Shown here piece after piece: positions 15,997 through 26,064 of a stretch of DNA of 64,000 bases (its first letter is position 1; each line of letters opens with the position of its first letter). Source of the stretch: Betaproteobacteria bacterium (GTDB lineage: Bacteria; Pseudomonadota; Gammaproteobacteria; Burkholderiales; Casimicrobiaceae); NCBI GenBank assembly GCA_016861105.1, contig BOKS01000009.1, positions 1 to 64,000 of the forward strand. Reading direction: 5' to 3'. A model generated the notes under the pieces. The model saw nothing but the letters and a program-made list of their open reading frames with translations. It searched no databases and was not told the origin of the DNA. Both the position numbers and the translations under genes were made by a program.

Positions 15997-16563
15997 ATGA
16001 CGCCCCTGGGCCCCGCCGTCCTCGCCTTGCTGCTCGCCGCGGCCGCCGGCACCGCGGCCGCGGTGCCGTTCGAGCGCACGCTCGAGCACAAGGGCATCCG
16101 CTTCCACGTGAGCAGCGCGAACGACGCGGCCGTCAACACGCTGCGCATCGTGCCGAGCGGCCTCGCGGAGAGCAACGCCCCCATCGAGCGCACGGTCGAC
16201 GGCACGGTCACCGGCGCCGACGTCGCCGACCTCGACGCCGACGGCTCGCCGGAGATCTACGTCTACGCCACGTCCGCGGGCAGCGGGTCCTACGGGACGC
16301 TCGTCGCGTACGCGGCGAGCAAGCGCCGCGCCTTGGCGCTCATCCATCTCGCGCCGGTGACCGCGAACAAGGCGGCGGCTGCCGGCTACATGGGCCACGA
16401 CACGTTCGCGATCAGCCGCAACGCGCTGGTGCAGCGCTTCCCGGTCTACCGCGACGGCGACGCGAACGCGAAGCCCTCCGGCGGCACCCGCGAACTCCAC
16501 TACCGGCTCGTCGCCGACGGCGCGGCCTGGCGCCTGCGCCTGGAGCGCATCGTCGAGCGCTAG
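15997..16563 (+). CDS. PliI-type periplasmic inhibitor of I-type lysozyme
   Basis: A 188-aa exported protein: signal peptide ([19 protein letters not shown]), then [55 protein letters not shown] and [20 protein letters not shown]. The [11 protein letters not shown] and SGSGSYG blocks match the PliI family, where the SGxxY loop inserts into the active site of invertebrate-type lysozymes. ATG 15997 gives a normal signal peptide. Monocistronic, divergent from gltX. Such a protein would protect peptidoglycan in contact with invertebrate hosts or grazers; that ecological reading is inference. Confidence 0.85.
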
Positions 16564-16710
16564 CGTCGCGCGTCGGAGGTTCGTCGAAGCACGCCTGGAC
16601 CGTGAACGAGGCGGCGGAGCACAGGCGACGGCAATGATGCGCTGCGCGAAGCGGCCCGACGCGGGTCTCGCGAATGTCCGCGATGGCCCCGGCCCTGCAG
16701 CCCGCCGTGG

Positions 16711-19700
16711 CTAGCGCGCGGTCGCCGCGCCCTGGTAGCGCAGGTCGAGGGTGGCGGGCGTCGCGGGGTTCGGCGGCTCGGCAGCGACGTCCATCGGGCC
16801 GGGCGTGTGCCCGTGCGGCCAGAAGCGCGCGAAGCGGCGCGCCTCGGCCTCGTTGGCGTTCACCGGGAAGCGGTCGTAGTTGCGCCCGCCGGGATGCGCG
16901 ACGTGATAGGTGCAGCCGCCCAGCGCGCGACCGGCCCACGTGTCGACCACGTCGAAGGTGAGCGGCGCCTGCACGCCGATGGTGGGATGCAGCGCGGACG
17001 GCGGGTTCCACGCGCGAAACCGCACGCCGGCGACGAACTCGCCGGGCACGCCCGTCGGCGTGAGCGGCAGCAGGCGGCCGTTGCACGCTACCGCGTGACG
17101 TCCCTTCGTCATGCCGGTGACCTTCGCCTGCAGCCGCTCGACCGACGAGTCGACGTAGCGCGCCGTCCCGGTGCCCGCCACCTCTTCGCCCAGCACGTGC
17201 CAGGGCTCGATCGCCTGGCGCAGCTCGAGGGTGACGCCGTCGTAGGTCACCGTGCCGAAGCGCGGGAAGCGGAACTCGACGAAGGGGTCGAACCAGGCGG
17301 GGGCGAAGGGGTAGCCGGCGCGCTCGAGGTCCGCCACCACGTCGGCGATGTCCGCCGCGACGAAGTGCGGCAGCAGCCAGCGGTCGTGCAGCGCCGTGCC
17401 CCAGCGCACCAGCGGCGCGCGGTAGGGCTCGCGCCAGAACCGCGCGACCAGCGCGCGCAGCAGCAGCATCTGCACCGCGCTCATGCGCCAGTGCGGCGGC
17501 ATCTCGAACGCGCGGAACTCGAGGAGGCCGAGCCGCCCGGTCGGCCCGTCGGGCGAGTAGAGCTTGTCGACCGAGAACTCGGCGCGGTGCGTGTTGCCGG
17601 TGAGGTCGGTAAGCAGGTGCCGCAGCAGGCGGTCGACGAGCCACGGCTGGATCGCCTCGCTGCCGGCTTCGTGCCGCCGCTCCATCTGCTGGAACGCGAT
17701 CTCGAGCTCGTAGAGCTTGTCGTCGCGCGCCTCGTCGACGCGCGGGGCCTGGCTCGTCGGGCCGACGAACGTGCCCGAGAACAGGTACGACAGCGCCGGG
17801 TGGTTCTGCCAGTAGGTGATCAGGCTGCGCAGCAGGTCGGGCCGGCGCAGCAGCGGACTGTCGGCGGGCGTGGGGCCGCCCAGCGTCACGTGGTTGCCGC
17901 CGCCGGTCCCGGTGTGGCGGCCGTCGAGCATGAACTTCTCGGTGCCGAGCCGCGCGAGGCGCGCCTCCTCGTAGAGCGCCTCGATCGTCCCGGTCAGCGC
18001 GCGCCACGTGCGCGCCGGGTGGACGTTGACCTCGATCACGCCAGGGTCCGGCGTGACCGCGAGCACCGAGACGCGCGGATCGCGCGGCGGCGGATAGCCT
18101 TCGACGGCGACGCGCACGTCGAGCGCGGCCGACGTGTCCTCGACCGCGGCCGCGAGCGCGGCGAAGGCCTCGAGGCGCGCGAGCGGCGGCAGGAACACGC
18201 GCAGGTGGCCGCCGCGGGCCTCGACGCACAGGGCCGTCTTGACCACCGTCGCGGCGGTGCGGCCGTCGCGCACGCCGGCGAGGTCGTCGCGGCCCGGCAG
18301 CCGGCCGCGCGGGGCGAACGGGTCGCCCGGCGGATCGCGTTCCTCGTCGAGCGGCAGCACGTCGGGCAGCGAGGCGAGCGGCAGGCGCAGGCCGAGCGGC
18401 GAATCGCCGGGCAGCAGGTACAACCGCCCGCGCCGCAGCGGCCATTCGCTCGACACCCATCCGGTCGGCGCGGCGTCGTCGTCCTGCGGCTTGAGCGGCA
18501 GCACGCAGCCCGCCGGCGTGTCCAGCCCGGCGAGCAGCAGCCGCGCGAGGCGCGCGCGCTCGGTCGGACTCGCGAGATCGGCCGCCAGCGGATCGACGTT
18601 CGGCGGCAGCGCCGCCTCGTCGCGCAGCAGCTGCGGCACGTCCTCGTAGGCGACGATCACGCGCTCGGGGGGCAGGCGCAGCCGCTCGGCCAGCGCCCGC
18701 GCGAAGCGCCGGGCGTCGTCCACGCCCATCGTGCCGCCGGCGGCGGTGTCGGCGAAGCGCGCGGGATCGCGCCACAGCGGCTCGCCGTCGGTGCGCCAGA
18801 ACACGCCCAGCGACCAGCGCGGCAGCGGCTCGCCCGGATACCACTTCCCCTGCGCGTCTTGCCACAGGCCGCCCGGCGCGAAGCGCCGCGCGAGGCGCGC
18901 GAGCAGCGCCGCGGCGAGCGCGCGCTTGCGCGGCGAGAGCGCGGCGTGGTTCCACTCGGGGCCGTCCATGTCGTCGATCGACACGAACGTCGGCTCGCCG
19001 CCCTGCGTGAGCCGCACGTCCATGGCCGCGAGCTCTTCGTCGACGGCCTCCCCGAGCCGGTCGACCGCCTGCCACTGCACGTCGGTGTACGGCCGCGTGA
19101 CGCGCGGATCCTCGTGGATGCGCGTGACGTGCATCGCGAAGTCGAACGCGACCTCGCAGGGGTCGGTGAACCCGATCACCGGTGCGGCGTTGCCCGGATC
19201 GGCCGTGCACGCGAGCGGCAGGTGTCCTTCGCCGGCGAGGAGGCCGGACGTGGGATCGAGCCCGATCCAGCCAGCGCCCGGGAGGTAGGCCTCGGCCCAC
19301 GCGTGCAGGTCGGTGAAGTCGCGGTCCGTCCCGGCCGGCCCGTCCAGCGGCTTCACGTCCGCCACGAGCTGGATCAGGTAGCCGGAGGCGAAGCGCGCGG
19401 CGATGCCGAGGTGGCGGAGGATCTGCACCATCAGCCAGCCGCTGTCGCGACAGGAGCCGCAGGCGCGCTCGAACGTCTGTTCGGGCGTCTGCACGCCCGG
19501 CTCCATCCGCACCAGGTAGCGGATCTCCTGCTGCAGCATCTGGTTGAGCCGCACGAGCAGCAGCACCGTGCTCTCGCCCGGCTCGATCGTGGCGCGGAAG
19601 CGTTCGAGGAACGCCGCGAGCCGCGGGCCCGCCGCCTCCTTCTCCAGGAACGGAATCAGCTCCTTGGCCAGCGCCGGCGCGTACGCGAACGGATAGCCCT

Positions 19701-19998
19701 CGGCGTACGCCTCCACGAAGAAGTCGAACGGGTTGACGACCGACAGGTCGGCCGTCAGGTCGACGACGATCTCGAGCGAGCGCGCCGGCTCGGGAAAGAC
19801 GAGGCGCGCCAGCCAGTTGCCGTAGGGGTCCTGCTGCCAGTTGAGGAAGTGCTTCTCGGGCTTGACGTCGAGCGAGTAGCCGAGCACCGGCGTGCGGCAG
19901 TGCGGCGCCGGCCGCAGGCGGATCTCGTGTGGCGACAGGCGCACCGGCCGGTCGAACCGGTAGGTCGTGCGGTGCTGGAGGGCTACGCGGATCGACAC
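16711..19998 (-). CDS. Transglutaminase-like/DUF2126 protein of the Anbu cluster
   Basis: A 1095-aa two-part protein. Residues about 1–85 form the bacterial transglutaminase N-terminal β-domain ([20 protein letters not shown]). Residues about 155–255 are the papain-like transglutaminase core with Cys183 ([11 protein letters not shown]), His232 ([12 protein letters not shown]) and Asp248 (GLDPTSG). Residues about 290–1090 form DUF2126, with [36 protein letters not shown] and [14 protein letters not shown]. Predicted to act as a peptidase or amide-forming enzyme; no activity is established. GTG start at 19998. It is the last gene of a leftward cluster after Anbu (184-bp gap). Confidence 0.9.
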
Positions 19999-20182
19999 GG
20001 CAGGACTCCGCAGGGTGGAGGGCAGGCGCGCGCGCCGCGCATCGCGCCCGGTGTTGCGTGCCGTGGCCGGCGGGCGCCGCCGGGCAGTCCGCAGGCGCCG
20101 GCCTGATCGCGCGCAGCGAAGAACGCGGGGCGGCGACGCCGCGCGGGCCCGCGTCGCCGCGCGAGCGTTTGTCGTTGGCGCG

Positions 20183-20914
20183 TCAGGTCCAGTCCGGATC
20201 CGGCAGCTGCCCGAAGACCCGCCGCAGCCCCTCGCCCCACTGCGTGTGCACCATGCGGAAGTACGGATCGGACTCGTCGATGCGCCGCTGCATGCGCACG
20301 CGCAGGGCGTCGGTCTCGTAGACCAGGAGGTCGATCGGCAGGCCGACGGAGATGTTGGAGCGCATCGTCGAGTCGAACGACACGATCGTGCACTTCACGG
20401 CCTCGGGCAGGCTCGTGCGCCGCGTCACCACGCGGTCGATGATCGGCTTGCCGTACTTCGTCTCGCCGATCTGGAAGTAGCAGGTGTCCGGCGTCGCCTC
20501 GATGAAGTTGCCCTCGCTGTACACGTGGAACAGCCGCGGCGGCTCGCCGCGGATCTGGCCGCCGACGACGAAGTTCGCCGAGGAGTCGATGTTGTTCTGC
20601 ATGAGGTAGGCGCCGTCGCGGCTCTTCACCTCGCGCAGCGCGTCGCCGAGCACGCGGGCCACGTCGAACATCGACGGCGCATTCATGAAGTGCAGCTGGT
20701 TGTCGCCGCCGCGGATGCGCTGGTCCATCGTCGACAGCGCGTTCTGCGTGATCGACAGGTTGCCCGACGACAGCGTCACCACCACGCGGGCGCCCTCCTC
20801 GGCGAACACCCGCATCTTCGAGAAGCGCGCGATGTGGTCCACCCCCGCGTTCGTGCGCGAGTCGGAGGCGAAGATCATGCCGGCGTCGAGCGCCATGGCG
20901 ACGCAGTACGTCAT
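20183..20914 (-). CDS. Anbu-type proteasome-like NTN hydrolase
   Basis: A 243-aa member of the Anbu (ancestral beta subunit) branch of self-compartmentalising NTN proteases, related to HslV. Removing Met leaves an N-terminal Thr1 (TYCVAMALDAG), with Asp17 in FASDSRTNAG and Lys32 in FSKMRVF as the expected catalytic set. Further family blocks are GGDNQLHFMNAPSMFDVARV and FFxIGETKYGKPIIDR-like (seen as CYFQIGETKYGKPIIDR). Anbu is known from structures to form open helical or lock-washer assemblies; its substrates are unresolved. No hslU or other unfoldase gene is nearby. Genes for alpha-E, ATP-grasp and transglutaminase proteins flank it, the standard Anbu neighbourhood. Confidence 0.92.
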   Translation of the reverse strand: MTYCVAMALDAGMIFASDSRTNAGVDHIARFSKMRVFAEEGARVVVTLSSGNLSITQNALSTMDQRIRGGDNQLHFMNAPSMFDVARVLGDALREVKSRDGAYLMQNNIDSSANFVVGGQIRGEPPRLFHVYSEGNFIEATPDTCYFQIGETKYGKPIIDRVVTRRTSLPEAVKCTIVSFDSTMRSNISVGLPIDLLVYETDALRVRMQRRIDESDPYFRMVHTQWGEGLRRVFGQLPDPDWT

Positions 20915-20978
20915 GGAAGCGTGCAGGCCGTGGTGGCGTGGATGCCGCGATTGTACCCGCGCGTCGCATCGCCGCCGG

Positions 20979-21938
20979 TCAGGCGGGCGCGAGGAAGCGC
21001 CGCGTGATCTCGTCGGCGAGGCCCGAGATGCGCCCGAGGAAGTCGACGAGGTACTCGTGCAGGCCGAAGCGCATGATGTCCTCCGTGCGGCCGAAGCGAA
21101 GCCGCGCGTGCAGCTCGCCCGCGAGCCGCTCGAGCTCCCAGTGGCTGTCGTCGCAGAGGATGTGCAGCGTCTCCGCGATCATGCTCATGCACGCGTGCAG
21201 CGAGCGCGGCATGTCGCGCCGCAGGATCAGCAGCTCCGCCACGCGCCGCGGCGTGATCACGTCGCTGTAGATCTTGCGGTACGCCTCGAAGCCGGAGACC
21301 GAGGTCAGCAGCGACTGCCACTGGTAGTAGTCGACGGCGCCGCCGACGTCGTGCACGGACGGCAGCAGCAGGTGGTACTTGGTGTCGAGGATGCGCGCGG
21401 TGTTGTCGGCCCGCTCGAGGTGCGTGCCCAGGCGCAGGAAGTGGTAGGCCTCGCCGCGCAGCATCGTCCCGAACGTCACGCCGCGGAACAGGTGCGAGCG
21501 CATCTTCACCCAGTCGCAGAACTCCTGCACGCCGACGCGCTCGACGTGGTCGTGGTCGTAGCGCCGCATCTCCAGCCACGACGCGTTGATCTCCTCGTAC
21601 ATCTCGGAGGTGATCGACCCGCGCACCGAGCGCGCCGACTCGCGCGCCGCGCGCAGGCAGCTGTGGATCGACGACGGGTTGGCCGTGTCGAAGATCATGA
21701 AGCGCAGCACCTGCCCCGCGGCGAGCGCGGCGTGGCGCTGGTAGTAGGTGGTGGCGAGCCCGGTGGCGATCAGCGGCACGGCCCAGGGCGCGGCCCACGC
21801 GAGGCCCGGCTCCTCGAGGTGGTAGGGCAGCAGCGACGTCCGGTAGGTCACGTCCAGCAGGCGCGCGGTGTTCTCCGCCCGCTCGAAGTGCCGCCCGATC
21901 CAGTAGAGCTCGTTGGCGACCCGCGAGAGCATGGTCAT
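20979..21938 (-). CDS. Alpha-E domain protein of the Anbu cluster
   Basis: A 319-aa, mostly helical protein (alpha-E, formerly DUF403): MTMLSRVANELYWIGRHFERAENTAR at the start and a second similar block (FLRLGTHLERADNTARILDT) in the middle, indicating an internal duplication of the ERAENTAR/ERADNTAR helix. Known to co-occur with circularly permuted ATP-grasp enzymes; a direct biochemical role has not been shown. Its ATG overlaps the stop of the ATP-grasp gene by 4 bp (ATGA), indicating translational coupling and near-equal expression. Anbu follows 64 bp downstream. Confidence 0.92.
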   Translation of the reverse strand: MTMLSRVANELYWIGRHFERAENTARLLDVTYRTSLLPYHLEEPGLAWAAPWAVPLIATGLATTYYQRHAALAAGQVLRFMIFDTANPSSIHSCLRAARESARSVRGSITSEMYEEINASWLEMRRYDHDHVERVGVQEFCDWVKMRSHLFRGVTFGTMLRGEAYHFLRLGTHLERADNTARILDTKYHLLLPSVHDVGGAVDYYQWQSLLTSVSGFEAYRKIYSDVITPRRVAELLILRRDMPRSLHACMSMIAETLHILCDDSHWELERLAGELHARLRFGRTEDIMRFGLHEYLVDFLGRISGLADEITRRFLAPA

Positions 21939-23347
21939 TCGAGCACCCAGGTGTCCTTGGTGCCGCCGCCCTGCGACGAGTTCACGACGAGCGAGCCCTC
22001 GCGCAGCGCCACGCGCGTCAGCCCCCCCGGGACCAGCTTCACGGTGCCGCCGGAGAGCACGTAGGGCCGCAGGTCGATGTGGCGCGGCGCGACGCCCGCG
22101 GCGACGAACGTCGGGCAGGTGGATAGGGCCAGCGTCGGCTGGGCGATGTAGCCGTCCGGGTGCGCGCGGATGCGGGCGGCGAAGTCCTCGCGCTCCGACG
22201 CCGTCGAGGCCGGCCCGATGAGCATGCCGTAGCCCCCCGCGCCGTGCACCTCCTTCACCACCAGTTCGTGCAGGTGCGCGAGCACGTGGGCGCGGTCGTC
22301 GTCGCGCCAGGTCATCCACGTGGGCACGTTGCGCAGCACCGGCTCCTCGTCGAGGTAGAAGCGGATTATCTGCGGCACGTACGGATAGATCGACTTGTCG
22401 TCGGCGACGCCGGTGCCGATGGCGTTGGCCAGCGTCACGCGGCCGGCCCGGTAGGCGGCGAACAGCCCGGGCACGCCGAGCATCGAGTCGGCGCGGAACG
22501 CCCGCGGGTCGAGGAAGTCGTCGTCGACGCGCCGGTAGATGACGTGGACGCGCTGCGGGCCGCGCGTCGTGCGCATGTAGACCGTGTCGTCGCGGACGAC
22601 GAGGTCCTGACCCTCGCAGAGCTCGACCCCCATCTGCTGCGCGAGGAAGCTGTGCTCGAAGTAGGCCGAGTTGTAGGGACCGGGCGTCAGCACCGCGACG
22701 GTCGGGGCGTCGCCGCCGTCGGGCGAGACGGCGCGCAGGTTCTCCAGCAGCAGGTCGGGATAGTGCTGGACCGGGCGGATCGACTGCAGCGCGAACACCT
22801 CGGGCAGCAGCCGCATCATCATCTTGCGGTTCTCGAGCATGTACGACACGCCGGAGGGCACGCGCAGGTTGTCCTCCAGCACGTAGAACTCGCCCTCGCC
22901 CGCGCGCACGACATCCACGCCCGCGACGTGCGCGTAGATGCCGCCCGGGACGCGCATGCCGGTCATCTCGCGGCGGAACTGCGCGTTGCCGAGGACGCGC
23001 TCCCGCGGCACGAGCCCGGCGTCCAGGATGCGCTGCCCGTGGTAGATGTCGTCGAGGAACGCGTTGAGCGCGGCCACCCGCTGCCGCAGCCCGCGCTCGA
23101 GCACGTCCCACTCCGCGGCCGGGATGATGCGCGGGATGAGGTCGAACGGGATCAGCCGCTCCGCGCCGCCGCTGTCCCCGTACACGGCGAACGTGATGCC
23201 CACGCGGTGGAAGGCGCGCTCGGCCTCCTCCCGCTTCTGCGCGATGCGGTCGGGCGGGGTGCGCGCCAGCCAGTCGGCCAGCGGCCGGTAGTGCGGACGG
23301 ACGCTGCCGTCCGGGGCCTGCATCTCGTCGTAGGGTGGGTTCGGCAC
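21935..23347 (-). CDS. Circularly permuted ATP-grasp protein of the Anbu cluster
   Basis: A 470-aa protein of the DUF404/DUF407 (circularly permuted ATP-grasp) family: PYDEMQAPDGSVRPHYRPLADWL near the N-terminus, RIIPAAEWDVLERGLRQR, FYVLEDNLRVPSGVSYMLENR (nucleotide/metal region), GVADDKSIYPYVPQIIRFYL and VVNSSQGGGTKDTWVLE at the C-terminus. ATP-grasp enzymes form carboxylate–amine bonds, so a peptide or amide ligase role is predicted. GTG 23347 is the most likely start because the conserved region begins right after it; the ribosome-binding site is weak. First gene of the cluster, transcribed away from tRNA-Val. Confidence 0.88.
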   Translation of the reverse strand: MPNPPYDEMQAPDGSVRPHYRPLADWLARTPPDRIAQKREEAERAFHRVGITFAVYGDSGGAERLIPFDLIPRIIPAAEWDVLERGLRQRVAALNAFLDDIYHGQRILDAGLVPRERVLGNAQFRREMTGMRVPGGIYAHVAGVDVVRAGEGEFYVLEDNLRVPSGVSYMLENRKMMMRLLPEVFALQSIRPVQHYPDLLLENLRAVSPDGGDAPTVAVLTPGPYNSAYFEHSFLAQQMGVELCEGQDLVVRDDTVYMRTTRGPQRVHVIYRRVDDDFLDPRAFRADSMLGVPGLFAAYRAGRVTLANAIGTGVADDKSIYPYVPQIIRFYLDEEPVLRNVPTWMTWRDDDRAHVLAHLHELVVKEVHGAGGYGMLIGPASTASEREDFAARIRAHPDGYIAQPTLALSTCPTFVAAGVAPRHIDLRPYVLSGGTVKLVPGGLTRVALREGSLVVNSSQGGGTKDTWVLE

Positions 23348-23477
23348 GGTGCAGCGCCTGCGGGGTCGTCCCGATGGTAGCAAGCGCCAAGCCACCGGTG
23401 AAAATGCTTGTGGGGCAGCCTCTTAGGCGGGCATCCGCCCATCCTGAGGCATTTTTGCACCGATCGTGTGCACAAAT

Positions 23478-23518
23478 TGCACCGCTACGGTGCATTTCTG
23501 TCCATGACAGCCATGGAC
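23478..23518. promoter_or_regulatory. Two adjacent palindromes upstream of the Anbu cluster
   Basis: TGCACCG-CTA-CGGTGCA (23478–23494) and GTCCATG-ACAGC-CATGGAC (23500–23518) are perfect 7-bp inverted repeats only 5 bp apart, in the 240-bp spacer between the ATP-grasp gene and tRNA-Val. They sit about 130–170 bp before the ATP-grasp start. A further GC hairpin (GCGGGCATCCGCCC, about 23428–23441) is closer to the gene. They could be operator sites for the Anbu cluster; no regulator gene is adjacent. Confidence 0.45.
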
Positions 23519-23535
23519 GCGGCCCCTACGGCGGT

Positions 23536-23564
23536 TTGACCCCCCTCCGGCCGCGTGCTTAAAT
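23536..23564 (+). promoter_or_regulatory. Promoter of tRNA-Val
   Basis: TTGACC −35 (23536–23541), 17-nt spacer, TTAAAT −10 (23559–23564). The predicted start near 23571 leaves a 17-nt leader before the tRNA. Confidence 0.65.
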
Positions 23565-23587
23565 CCGTGCTCCTGTCTGGGTTCGCG

Positions 23588-23662
23588 GGGCGGTTAGCTC
23601 AGCGGTAGAGCACTGCCTTCACACGGCAGGGGTCACTGGTTCGAACCCAGTATCGCCCACCA
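23588..23662 (+). tRNA. tRNA-Val (anticodon CAC)
   Basis: A 75-nt cloverleaf: acceptor GGGCGGT/ATCGCCC with one G·U, D-arm AGCTCAGCGGTAGAGC, anticodon loop TTCACAC giving CAC (reads GTG), T-arm CTGGTTCGAACCCAG and encoded CCA. It has its own promoter and is followed 10 nt later by an intrinsic terminator, so it is a single-gene unit. Confidence 0.97.
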
Positions 23663-23672
23663 CATGAACCGC

Positions 23673-23705
23673 GGGGTCGCATGCAAATGCGACCCCTTTT
23701 TTTTT
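23673..23705 (+). terminator. Rho-independent terminator of tRNA-Val
   Basis: A perfect 10-bp stem GGGGTCGCAT/ATGCGACCCC with a GCAA tetraloop is followed by nine T residues. It ends 2 bp before the stop codon of the convergent patatin-type gene. Confidence 0.95.
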
Positions 23706-23707
23706 CG

Positions 23708-25969
23708 TCACGGCCGTCCGAGGAAGAAGTACGCGCTGCGATTGCCGCCGCTTCCGGCGCCGTAGCCCAGGTACACGGGGCCGAGCGGACTGTCCACCGC
23801 GAGGAAGACGGCGCCCGAGTAGAGCATCCCGCGCGGATTGCCGGTCACGGCCGGCGTGCCGTAGTAGCCGGCCTCCGCCGCCGCGCCCGCGTACACGCCG
23901 TCGAACAGCGGCATCGCGAAGATGCGGTTGGTGTAGACCAGCCGTCCGTAGGCGAAGTCGCGGTTGAGCAACTGGCCGGTGGCAAAGCCCGACTGCTGCA
24001 GGAAGCCGCCCCACGGCGATGCGATGTAGAGCCCGCCGGCATCCTGGGTGATCGGACCGCTGCCGCGCATGCTCGCGACGAGGGCGTGCGGGCCCGTGGC
24101 GTACGCCACCGTGCCGCTCGCATCCCAGCGGTCGTACTCGAGGTCCGATCCCAGCGCCTTCAGGCCCCGGGAAAGCTCGACGCCGAAGGCGTAGCCGCTG
24201 CGCGGGAAGTTGACGTTGTCGAGCTGGTCGACGAACCCCCGCAGCCGCACGCCGGCCAGCGTCGCCGAGCGCTCGTCGTCGATCAGCGCGATGCCGTTGT
24301 TGATGCTGGGCTTCGCGACGCCGCCGAAGAAGCCGGCGCGGATCTCTCCGTAGCGGGCGAAGCTCGTGCCGACGTCCAGCCCGGCGAGGGCCGAGGGCAG
24401 CGAGTATTCGGCAATGCGCAGGTCGTCGGCGAAGATGTCGACGAACGTGCGCTCGAACTCGAGCCGCGGCGCGACGAACCAGTTCTGGCGCTCGTCGAGC
24501 GGCTGGTAGTACTCCGTGACGAGGCTCGTCGCGCGCCCGAGCGAGATGTCCGTGCGCCACTCGGCGCCGCGGCTGTCCATCCAGGTCCGCCGGTACTGGC
24601 CGAGGACGCTGAAGTAGGCGCCGCCGTCGAAGTCCGAGGTGAGGCCCAGCCCGAAGCGCAGGTAGTTCGGCCCCCAGCTCTTCTCCACCGCGTCGATGTT
24701 CAGGATGCGCCGCGCCGGCGACTCCAGGATCTGGTAGCTGATGCGCTCGAAGTCGTCGGTGCCGTAGAGCCGTGCCAGGTTGCGGTCCAGCTGCGCCGTG
24801 TCGAGCGGCTCGCCGGGCTTCGCGTCGAGCAGCGACCGCAGGTACTCGGGGTTGACGCGGGCCATCGGCGAGAACGTGATCTCGTCGACGGGGCGCGTGT
24901 CCGGCGGCGGGACGGCGCGCTGCCGCTCGCGCAGTTCCGCGTAGCGCTGCGGCGGCAGCGAGAGCGCCGCCAGACGATCGGCGACCTTCCGCGCCGCGGC
25001 CTCCCCGATCGGCCAGGTCGTGGCCATGTGGTCGAAGTCGCCCGCCGAGTAGTCGCCGAGCTCGGGCAGGATCAGGATGTCGGAGGGCTCGAGCGACTCG
25101 AGCGTGCGCTGGACGTTCTGCTCGGTGAGGATGCCGATCATCTGGCCGGTGATGCCGAGGACGTCCTGGATCTGCTCGCGCCGCATCAGGGGCGTGCCGA
25201 GGTTCACCGCGATGACGACGTCCGCGCCCATGGCGCGCGCCACGTCGACCGGCAGGTTGTTCACCAGCCCGCCGTCGACGAGCATCATGCCGTCGACCTC
25301 GGCGGGCGCGATGATGCCCGGCACCGACATGCTCGCGCGCATCGCCGACGCGAGCTCGCCGTGATCGAACACCTTCGGCTTCCCGGTCACCAGGTCGGTC
25401 GCCACGGCGCGGAACGGGATCGGCAGGCGGTCGAAGTCGACCGGTCCCTTGATGCGCGAGATCTCGCGCAGCACCGTCTCCAGGCGGATCCCGGAGATCG
25501 CGCCCTTGGCGAGCAGGACCGAGCCGTCGTCGCGCAGGCCGATCTGCGGGGCGAACAGGTTCAGGGCGTCGTCCTGCTTGCGGCGCACCGTGCGCTCCTG
25601 CCGCGGCGGCTGCTCGCGGAACAGCGCGTCGATGGTGAGGCGCTGCGTGAGCTGCTCCATCTCGGCCACGCTCATGCCGCTCGCGTAGCCGGCGCCGACC
25701 AGCGCCCCCATGCTCGTGCCGGCGATGCAGTCGACCGGCACGCGGTACTCCTCGAGCACCTTCAGCACGCCGATGTGCGCCGCCCCGCGCGCCCCGCCGC
25801 CGGAGAGCACCAGGCACACGCGCGGTCGTGCGCCGGACGCGACGCCCGCCGCGCCGGACACGGCCGGCGCCGGCGGCGGACGCTCCGCCGGCGCGGGCGC
25901 CTGCGCGCCCGCGGTGGACGACACGACGAGGGCCGCGACGGCAGCGGCGGTCACGGAAAGGATCGACAT
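23708..25969 (-). CDS. Patatin-like phospholipase with C-terminal outer-membrane barrel (PlpD-type, type Vd)
   Basis: A 753-aa protein. Signal peptide MSILSVTAAAVAALVVSSTA (cleavage near GAQA), Pro/Ala linker, then a patatin domain (about 50–250) with oxyanion GGGARG (57–62), nucleophile Ser86 in GTSMG and the dyad Asp232 in DGG. A POTRA-like segment follows (FSPMARVNPEYLRSLL, about 305–385). The last about 350 residues are amphipathic β-strands of a BamA/Omp85-type 16-strand barrel. This architecture matches Pseudomonas PlpD, a patatin secreted through its own barrel. ATG 25969 gives the good signal peptide; an ATG 54 nt upstream would put an Arg-rich stretch in front. Confidence 0.9.
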   Translation of the reverse strand: MSILSVTAAAVAALVVSSTAGAQAPAPAERPPPAPAVSGAAGVASGARPRVCLVLSGGGARGAAHIGVLKVLEEYRVPVDCIAGTSMGALVGAGYASGMSVAEMEQLTQRLTIDALFREQPPRQERTVRRKQDDALNLFAPQIGLRDDGSVLLAKGAISGIRLETVLREISRIKGPVDFDRLPIPFRAVATDLVTGKPKVFDHGELASAMRASMSVPGIIAPAEVDGMMLVDGGLVNNLPVDVARAMGADVVIAVNLGTPLMRREQIQDVLGITGQMIGILTEQNVQRTLESLEPSDILILPELGDYSAGDFDHMATTWPIGEAAARKVADRLAALSLPPQRYAELRERQRAVPPPDTRPVDEITFSPMARVNPEYLRSLLDAKPGEPLDTAQLDRNLARLYGTDDFERISYQILESPARRILNIDAVEKSWGPNYLRFGLGLTSDFDGGAYFSVLGQYRRTWMDSRGAEWRTDISLGRATSLVTEYYQPLDERQNWFVAPRLEFERTFVDIFADDLRIAEYSLPSALAGLDVGTSFARYGEIRAGFFGGVAKPSINNGIALIDDERSATLAGVRLRGFVDQLDNVNFPRSGYAFGVELSRGLKALGSDLEYDRWDASGTVAYATGPHALVASMRGSGPITQDAGGLYIASPWGGFLQQSGFATGQLLNRDFAYGRLVYTNRIFAMPLFDGVYAGAAAEAGYYGTPAVTGNPRGMLYSGAVFLAVDSPLGPVYLGYGAGSGGNRSAYFFLGRP

Positions 25970-26064
25970 GCGGGGGCTTCCGGCGAAGGCGCGCCGGGAC
26001 GGCCGCGCCCGACGCTGCCGCATGATACCGTCGCCCCGACCCCTCCCCCGGTACGAATCGCGCC

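What the first reader, a model, noticed from the sequence alone, without database searches (positions are those of the whole stretch)
16711..23347. Complete Anbu cluster: ATP-grasp, alpha-E, proteasome-like NTN hydrolase and transglutaminase–DUF2126
Four adjacent same-strand genes encode a circularly permuted ATP-grasp protein, an alpha-E protein (4-bp overlap), Anbu with Thr1/Asp17/Lys32 intact, and a 1095-aa transglutaminase-like protein with Cys183/His232/Asp248 intact. Established knowledge: Anbu structures and its conserved neighbourhood are published, but substrate and reaction are not known. Inference: the ATP-grasp/alpha-E pair may synthesise or attach a peptide or amide, and the transglutaminase and Anbu may remove or degrade it, forming a bacterial tag-and-process cycle without an AAA unfoldase. 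All catalytic residues are kept, so the system looks active here.
Basis: partly seen in the sequence, partly recalled or inferred. Interest (0 to 1): 0.75.

Follow-up and report, generated by a model that had tools for sequence, protein, structure and literature searches.

The report
Nitrogen-starvation-controlled Anbu ligase–hydrolase operon
Four neighbouring bacterial genes encode predicted amide-bond builders, a helical helper protein and a proteasome-like cutter of unknown job, and the DNA in front of them carries what looks like the switch that bacteria use to turn genes on when nitrogen runs out.

Summary
In detail: 16711–23347 (minus strand) holds an intact four-gene Anbu operon with the named catalytic residues. 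The kind is known.

Two things were missed. (1) Upstream lie two tandem NtrC boxes, the only two matches (≤1 mismatch) in the window, and a sigma-54 −24/−12 element. The genome encodes NtrC and RpoN. The sigma-54 element recurs at 15 of 16 clade relatives, 50 of 57 more distant named relatives and 15 of 52 operons in a near one-per-genus set, against 18 of 1156 background ORFs. In B. cenocepacia the ATP-grasp/alpha-E/transglutaminase cluster collapses in an ntrC mutant; in P. putida the operon is nitrogen-induced, but also in an rpoN mutant. (2) The usual short transglutaminase is replaced by a transglutaminase–DUF2126 protein, a predicted amidoligase whose model weakly resembles glutamine synthetase.

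Best reading: a nitrogen-limitation-induced cytosolic module that makes and breaks amide bonds. Nitrogen control is well supported; chemistry and substrate are inferred.

The parts
21935..23347 (-). Circularly permuted ATP-grasp ligase, first gene; GTG start at 23347
   Evidence: Pfam CP_ATPgrasp_2 563 bits; PDB 3n6x E 6e-211; the model of a related fused protein matches 3n6x and then glutathione synthetases
20979..21938 (-). Alpha-E helical protein, 319 aa; 4-bp overlap with ATP-grasp
   Evidence: Pfam Alpha-E 332 bits; only copy found in this 85% complete genome; no clear solved relative, best E 0.11
20183..20914 (-). Anbu, proteasome-like Ntn hydrolase; Thr1 follows the start Met
   Evidence: 5loy E 1.3e-99; Thr1/Asp17/Lys32 conserved
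16711..19998 (-). Transglutaminase-like domain (residues 1 to about 250) fused to DUF2126 predicted amidoligase (279-1087)
   Evidence: Pfam; Cys183/His232/Asp248 invariant in 42 sequences; model resembles 3isr and, weakly, glutamine synthetases
23478..23494 (-). NtrC box 1, perfect TGCACC-N5-GGTGCA, -147 from the ATP-grasp start
   Evidence: Only exact match in the window and in the held genome
23456..23472 (-). NtrC box 2 (one mismatch), 22 bp downstream of box 1, start to start
   Evidence: window shuffles expect 0.15 matches at up to one mismatch, 0 of 100 had two
23379..23394 (-). Sigma-54 type -24/-12 element TGGCTTGGCGCTTGCT, -47 from the ATP-grasp start
   Evidence: 10 of 12 consensus positions (reached in 123 of 5000 shuffles of this region, so weak on its own); an element at -46/-47 in 13 of 16 clade relatives and at -78/-81 in 2 more
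23499..23509 (-). Clade-specific palindrome TGTCATGGACA just upstream of NtrC box 1, function unknown
   Evidence: At least 10 of 11 positions in 12 of 17 clade members including the window, 0 of 57 other Anbu operons, 5 of 1156 background regions; pattern chosen after seeing these sequences

Best explanation
This is an NtrC-controlled operon, probably read by sigma-54 polymerase, that the cell turns on when fixed nitrogen is short. The ATP-grasp protein and alpha-E most likely act together as an ADP-forming ligase, glutathione-synthetase-like in fold, that joins an amine or amino acid to a carboxylate. The fourth protein adds a second predicted ligase domain (DUF2126) and a thiol (transglutaminase-like) domain that can transfer or hydrolyse amides. 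Anbu, a threonine Ntn hydrolase that may need no unfoldase, cuts the amide or peptide products. Together they would run a make-and-break amide cycle that captures, stores or recovers nitrogen. Shown by sequence here: the gene set, the named active-site residues, the NtrC/sigma-54 elements and their recurrence. Inferred: co-transcription, the ligase and hydrolase activities, the substrates and the salvage purpose.
For: Two NtrC boxes plus a sigma-54 element upstream. NtrC (718 bits, cut-off 558.6) and RpoN (459.5, cut-off 277.35) are encoded. The genome's glnA has a similar layout. Sigma-54 score of at least 10 of 12: 15 of 16 in the window's clade, 50 of 57 other named relatives, 15 of 52 in a near one-per-genus phylum sample including the window, against 18 of 1156 background ORFs, 0 of 52 alpha-E starts, 2 of 52 Anbu starts (Fisher p). 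NtrC score of at least 10: 10 of 16, 38 of 57, 9 of 52, against 31 of 1156. P. putida: log2 3.99 (ATP-grasp) and 4.44 (Anbu) on nitrate against ammonium; the ATP-grasp promoter responds 3.7-fold to nitrogen depletion (PMC8050072, passages). B. cenocepacia: DUF404/407, DUF403 and two transglutaminase genes fall by log2 6.0 to 9.4 in an ntrC mutant and are named as common NtrC and sigma-54 targets; no Anbu gene is named there (PMC5491218, passages). Marine metagenomes: these domains group with urea-metabolism domains (PMC3597751, passages). UrtA co-occurrence: 88 of 182 alpha-E genomes against 22 of 167 without. ATP-grasp/alpha-E natural fusions. Fold matches.
Against: No substrate is known. Published assays found no peptidase activity and no operon complexes. 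In P. putida the three non-Anbu genes are still induced 14-20 fold by nitrogen limitation in an rpoN mutant, and Anbu itself only 1.1 (wild type) to 4.8 fold (PMC7801951, passages); urtA behaves alike there (11-fold in the mutant). The promoter directly before Anbu in P. putida was not nitrogen-responsive. 37 of 52 operons in the phylum sample lack a sigma-54 score of 10. NtrC boxes are near background in Anbu-less clusters (3 of 49, p 0.16). The own genome has no UrtA over cut-off. Profile comparison of the DUF2126 alignment with the genome's partial glutamine synthetase failed (probability 0.2%); the fold match is weak (E 0.02 to 0.26). Anbu is patchy even among close kin: 8 of 21 other genomes of the genus. 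Counts are not corrected for phylogeny.
Confidence: 0.5

Rival explanations
1. Protein tagging and untagging (Iyer et al. 2009 as cited): the ligases attach a peptide or amide to proteins, and Anbu with the transglutaminase removes it or degrades the tagged protein.
For: Ligase-type and hydrolase-type proteins in one operon; proposal reported in PMC6376114 (passages); Anbu is proteasome-like with intact Thr1.
Against: No extra neighbour of 90 aa or more recurs widely: the commonest flanking family is in 13 of 155 loci (shorter tag genes would be missed). No peptidase activity or complex reported. 64 of 182 alpha-E genomes lack Anbu, so the core works without the supposed eraser.
Confidence: 0.2
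2. Bulk protein turnover: Anbu degrades cell proteins in nitrogen starvation and feeds the other enzymes (discussed by Fuchs 2017 and Piasecka 2018).
For: Pa-Anbu Thr1 binds proteasome inhibitors (section read); Anbu mRNA up on nitrate against ammonium.
Against: No unfoldase in the operon; no activity on proteasome substrates. Anbu itself rose only 1.1 fold in nitrogen-limited wild-type P. putida in another study. Sigma-54 elements also precede Anbu-less ATP-grasp/alpha-E clusters (18 of 49 ATP-grasp starts), so the element is not tied to the protease.
Confidence: 0.15
3. A small-molecule pathway such as a glutathione-like or polyamine conjugate, with Anbu as its amidase; proteins are not involved.
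For: ATP-grasp fold closest to glutathione synthetases after 3n6x; 3n6x is itself deposited as a putative glutathionylspermidine synthase.
Against: No metabolite known; among Ntn hydrolases Anbu is closest to proteasome subunits. This is a specific form of the best explanation and hard to separate from it here.
Confidence: 0.3
4. The upstream palindromes are chance or a terminator, not NtrC sites.
For: A simple scan lists the 23478-23494 palindrome as terminator-like on the + strand. Genome-wide, 15 sites at up to one mismatch against 9 for the reversed control show that single imperfect sites are common.
Against: The annotated genes next to it on the + strand lie on its far side (tRNA-Val 23588-23662), with the operon on the minus strand. 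Two sites 22 bp apart; 0 of 100 window shuffles had two. Boxes scoring at least 10 at 10 of 16 clade operons, 8 of them within 2 bases of -148.
Confidence: 0.04

Closest known systems
Canonical Anbu operon (P. aeruginosa, P. putida PP_2685-2688, Y. bercovieri)
   Same: Same four gene families on one strand, same Anbu catalytic residues; nitrogen induction reported in P. putida
   Different: The usual order is ATP-grasp, alpha-E, short transglutaminase, Anbu (a short transglutaminase precedes Anbu in 56 of the 60 named loci outside the window's clade). Here Anbu is third and a long transglutaminase-DUF2126 protein follows it
Second module of many Pseudomonadota: fused ATP-grasp/alpha-E protein near a transglutaminase-DUF2126 protein
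   Same: The fourth protein is of this long type (54-65% identity to those outside the clade)
   Different: In that module ATP-grasp and alpha-E are one chain; here they are separate genes with Anbu in the same operon
B. cenocepacia I35_5080-83
   Same: ATP-grasp (DUF404/407), alpha-E (DUF403) and a large transglutaminase protein under NtrC (passages)
   Different: It also has a second transglutaminase gene; no Anbu is named in it
RimK/RimB and rlo operons of Pseudomonas
   Same: ATP-grasp ligase with a hydrolase; rlo also has an inactive transglutaminase-like membrane protein (PMC12239564, passages)
   Different: Aspartic peptidases instead of Anbu; no alpha-E mentioned

Membership tests
Anbu (proteasome-like) | Sequence match to solved Anbu proteins over nearly the full length | tested here: met
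   5loy E 1.3e-99, residues 2-242 of 243
Anbu (proteasome-like) | Met-Thr start giving Thr1, with Asp17 and Lys32 | tested here: met
Anbu (proteasome-like) | Open-ring 12-14 subunit particle | not testable with these tools
   Published for PaAnbu and YbAnbu
Canonical four-gene Anbu operon | ATP-grasp, alpha-E, transglutaminase and Anbu adjacent on one strand | tested here: met
Canonical four-gene Anbu operon | Short transglutaminase just before Anbu | tested here: not met
   Long transglutaminase-DUF2126 after Anbu; no second Bact_transglu_N match in the 85% complete genome
NtrC/sigma-54 regulon | NtrC boxes upstream of a -24/-12 element at enhancer distance | tested here: met
   consensus motifs recalled
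NtrC/sigma-54 regulon | ntrC and rpoN in the genome | tested here: met
NtrC/sigma-54 regulon | Induction on nitrogen limitation that depends on NtrC and RpoN | not testable with these tools
   In relatives: NtrC and sigma-54 dependence in B. cenocepacia; induction kept in a P. putida rpoN mutant
Glutamine-synthetase-like amidoligase (DUF2126) | Glutamine synthetase fold | tested here: inconclusive
   21 of the 50 rows shown are glutamine synthetases or homologues, probability up to 0.96 but E 0.02-0.26, on a model of pLDDT 73.9; aligned range not shown. Profile comparison negative
Peptide-tagging system | Encoded tag or modified target | tested here: inconclusive
   No widely recurrent extra gene of 90 aa or more within 4 kb across 155 loci; shorter ORFs not searched
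Anti-phage defence | Match to PADLOC models | tested here: not met
   No match at E 0.01

The most novel reading that the evidence does not exclude
Anbu is the hydrolytic end of a dedicated nitrogen-starvation amide economy in the cytosol. Two unrelated ATP-dependent ligase types (ATP-grasp and glutamine-synthetase-like) load nitrogen into an unknown peptide or conjugate, and two unrelated hydrolases (thiol and threonine) release it. In this lineage two modules that many other bacteria keep apart appear merged into one NtrC-controlled operon.
Probability: 0.3. Interest if true: 0.75.

Novelty: new variant of a known kind. Interest (0 to 1): 0.45.

Why it matters
Anbu is a proteasome relative whose substrate has been sought without success; the assays read here used purified proteins and standard proteasome substrates. 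If the operon belongs to the NtrC regulon across many genera, the place and time to look for substrates is nitrogen-limited cells, with the ligase core (not Anbu alone) as the main subject. The lineage seen here, with one alpha-E and one transglutaminase N-domain in the held genome, would be a compact model.

Tried and rejected
Defence or phage origin: no PADLOC or PHROG match at E 0.01. Extra system gene: the commonest flanking families are in at most 13 of 155 loci. General urea link: co-occurrence with UrtA but no UrtA over cut-off in this genome; only L079 and L207, and L094 weakly, of 195 loci carry urt-like genes nearby. Anbu as the reason for nitrogen control: Anbu-less clusters also carry sigma-54 elements, 18 of 49. 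Glutamine-synthetase homology of DUF2126 by sequence: negative, though the other side was one partial protein. Alpha-E fold: no match could be assigned to it among the 50 of 357 rows shown. Sigma-70 promoter in the operon region: none found.

Rows left out; 7 of 80 loci had no usable ATP-grasp start; 75 loci from 74 genomes, one genome for each of 74 of the 75 other genera with Anbu (G141 not fetched; G246 gave two loci); 40 chosen alpha-E loci, not a random sample. Many of the 57 non-clade relatives are Paraburkholderia, so not independent. A1 used 28 of the 30 fused proteins found. A2 used the window, 18 of 20 proteins and 23 of 29; near-duplicates were dropped.
Full report
WHAT IS THERE. 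The minus strand of 16711-23347 carries, in order of transcription, a circularly permuted ATP-grasp protein, an alpha-E protein, Anbu, and a 1095-aa transglutaminase-DUF2126 protein. The ORF list offers an ATP-grasp start at 23395, but that codon overlaps the sigma-54 element described below, so 23347 is preferred.

THE GENOME. The window belongs to a 4.49-Mb, 28-contig genome, 85% complete. Its nearest named relatives are metagenome bins of Betaproteobacteria and Burkholderiales, one titled Casimicrobiaceae. It holds one alpha-E and one Bact_transglu_N match. ATP-grasp copies were not counted by their own family; a fused ATP-grasp/alpha-E query gave two matches in this genome, of which the listed one is the window's ATP-grasp. 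Anbu is patchy among close kin: 26 of 64 genomes of the family, and 8 of the 21 other genomes of the genus.

THE PROMOTER. Allowing one mismatch, TGCACC-N5-GGTGCA occurs exactly twice in 64 kb, at 23478-23494 (perfect) and 23456-23472; shuffles expect 0.15, and 0 of 100 had two. The perfect copy is the only perfect one in the held genome; at one mismatch the genome has 15 sites against 9 for the reversed control pattern, so single imperfect sites mean little. A -24/-12 element with 10 of 12 consensus positions lies at -47; shuffles of this region reach that score in 123 of 5000, a perfect NtrC box in 2 of 5000, and two boxes of 11 or more in 0 of 5000. The genome encodes NtrC and RpoN over their curated cut-offs, and its glnA shows boxes plus a sigma-54 element in a similar layout. 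The consensus motifs themselves are recalled. No sigma-70-like promoter was found in 16400-23800.

CONSERVATION OF THE PROMOTER. Among 80 named loci, 73 had a usable ATP-grasp start. In the window's clade the sigma-54 score is at least 10 in 15 of 16 (13 at -46/-47, two at -78/-81), and NtrC boxes score at least 10 in 10 of 16. Elsewhere the counts are 50 of 57 and 38 of 57, though many of these are Paraburkholderia. In a near one-per-genus sample of the phylum, window included, 15 of 52 operons reach sigma-54 10: 8 of 15 in the same class and 7 of 37 outside it; NtrC reaches 10 in 9 of 52. Background is 18 (sigma-54) and 31 (NtrC) of 1156 other ORFs; alpha-E starts give 0 of 52, Anbu starts 2 of 52, and loci without an upstream ATP-grasp gene 0 of 24 for sigma-54. 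Shuffles of the 52 regions give a mean of 1.1 and at most 4. Fisher p for 15 of 52 against background is 2e-13, uncorrected for relatedness. Anbu-less ATP-grasp/alpha-E clusters also carry the element (18 of 49 ATP-grasp starts), but NtrC boxes there are near background (3 of 49, p 0.16); the samples differ in taxonomy. So nitrogen control seems to attach to the ligase core.

PUBLISHED EXPRESSION. In P. putida the operon rises on nitrate against ammonium and the ATP-grasp promoter answers nitrogen depletion 3.7-fold, while the promoter directly before Anbu does not (PMC8050072, passages). In a second P. putida study the three non-Anbu genes rise 11-15 fold in the wild type, 17-37 fold in a relA/spoT mutant and 14-20 fold in an rpoN mutant; Anbu gives 1.1, 4.8 and 1.5. 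Its authors assign the genes to NtrB/NtrC, but induction without RpoN speaks against a strict sigma-54 need there; urtA also stays induced in that mutant (PMC7801951, passages). In B. cenocepacia the genes for DUF404/407, DUF403 and two transglutaminase proteins fall by log2 6.0 to 9.4 in an ntrC mutant under nitrogen limitation, and the cluster is named among common targets of NtrC and sigma-54; no Anbu gene is named there (PMC5491218, passages). COG3484, a proteasome-type protease, appears in a computed sigma-54 regulon (PMC12316311, passage). A Bradyrhizobium study lists a sigma-54 site before a CP_ATPgrasp_1 gene (PMC13207237, passages). The nitrogen link is thus in print for some species; a search for papers holding both 'Anbu' and 'NtrC' found none in the held library.

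ARCHITECTURE. In the window's clade (20 named loci) 18 show a long-type transglutaminase domain directly after Anbu and none shows the short transglutaminase. DUF2126 is visible in 15; L126 and L131 end inside the gene, L142 has about 1 kb more without a DUF2126 hit, and L130 and L145 end soon after Anbu. In the other 60, 56 have the short transglutaminase and none shows DUF2126. Across the phylum sample, 6 of 75 loci have Anbu beside a transglutaminase-DUF2126 gene, and 13 of 75 have Anbu with no partner hit nearby. Even so, of 349 genomes 120 have Anbu, 182 have alpha-E, 118 have both and only 2 have Anbu alone. Anbu thus goes with the alpha-E system, while 64 genomes have alpha-E without Anbu.

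STRUCTURE. A natural ATP-grasp/alpha-E fusion was modelled (28 sequences, pLDDT 81.7, pTM 0.68). It matches 3n6x and then glutathione synthetases; no match could be assigned to alpha-E among the 50 rows shown. The window's transglutaminase-DUF2126 protein (42 sequences, pLDDT 73.9, pTM 0.71) matches 3isr (E 9e-12) and, weakly, glutamine synthetases (21 of 50 rows shown, E 0.02-0.26). A comparison of its alignment with the genome's own partial glutamine synthetase was negative. The ligase reading of DUF2126 thus rests on the Pfam name and a weak fold match.

HOW IT MOST LIKELY WORKS. Under nitrogen limitation NtrC switches the operon on, probably with sigma-54 (supported by sequence here and by published data in relatives, with the rpoN result against). 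ATP-grasp with alpha-E makes an amide from a carboxylate and an amine, DUF2126 may make a second, and the transglutaminase-like domain and Anbu open amides again (inferred). The purpose is nitrogen capture or release (inferred). The tag model (Iyer 2009, known here only through citations) and the protein-turnover model remain open.

VERDICT. A confirmed, intact member of a known kind with an unusual fourth gene, and a strong, checkable pointer to nitrogen starvation.

Noticed in passing
23499-23509, and the same place in most of L126-L141: An 11-bp palindrome (consensus TGTCCWGGACA) just upstream of NtrC box 1 is at least 10 of 11 matched in 12 of 17 clade members including the window, 0 of 57 other Anbu operons and 5 of 1156 background regions; it suggests a second, unknown regulator. 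The pattern was chosen after seeing the sequences.
   Followed up: partly
L022, L029 and similar loci: Anbu genes with no partner hit nearby make up 13 of 75 loci. Seven loci of this sample share a flanking family whose representative reads like the start of MutS, and six share a downstream alpha/beta-hydrolase-like gene (both read by eye).
   Followed up: no
L057 (Anbu): The only one of 155 aligned Anbu proteins with Ser instead of Thr at position 1.
   Followed up: no
L079:6989-16688: The Anbu operon lies about 320 bp downstream of an urtABCDE-like urea transporter cluster on the same strand; only UrtA was confirmed by family.
   Followed up: partly
G094 and G302: Two genomes of one genus have Anbu but no alpha-E match; an Anbu working without the ligase core would be a useful contrast.
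   Followed up: no
23708-26023 (-) and 23588-23662 (+): A patatin-like protein (read by eye) and a tRNA-Val gene lie just upstream of the operon; no sign of a link.
   Followed up: no
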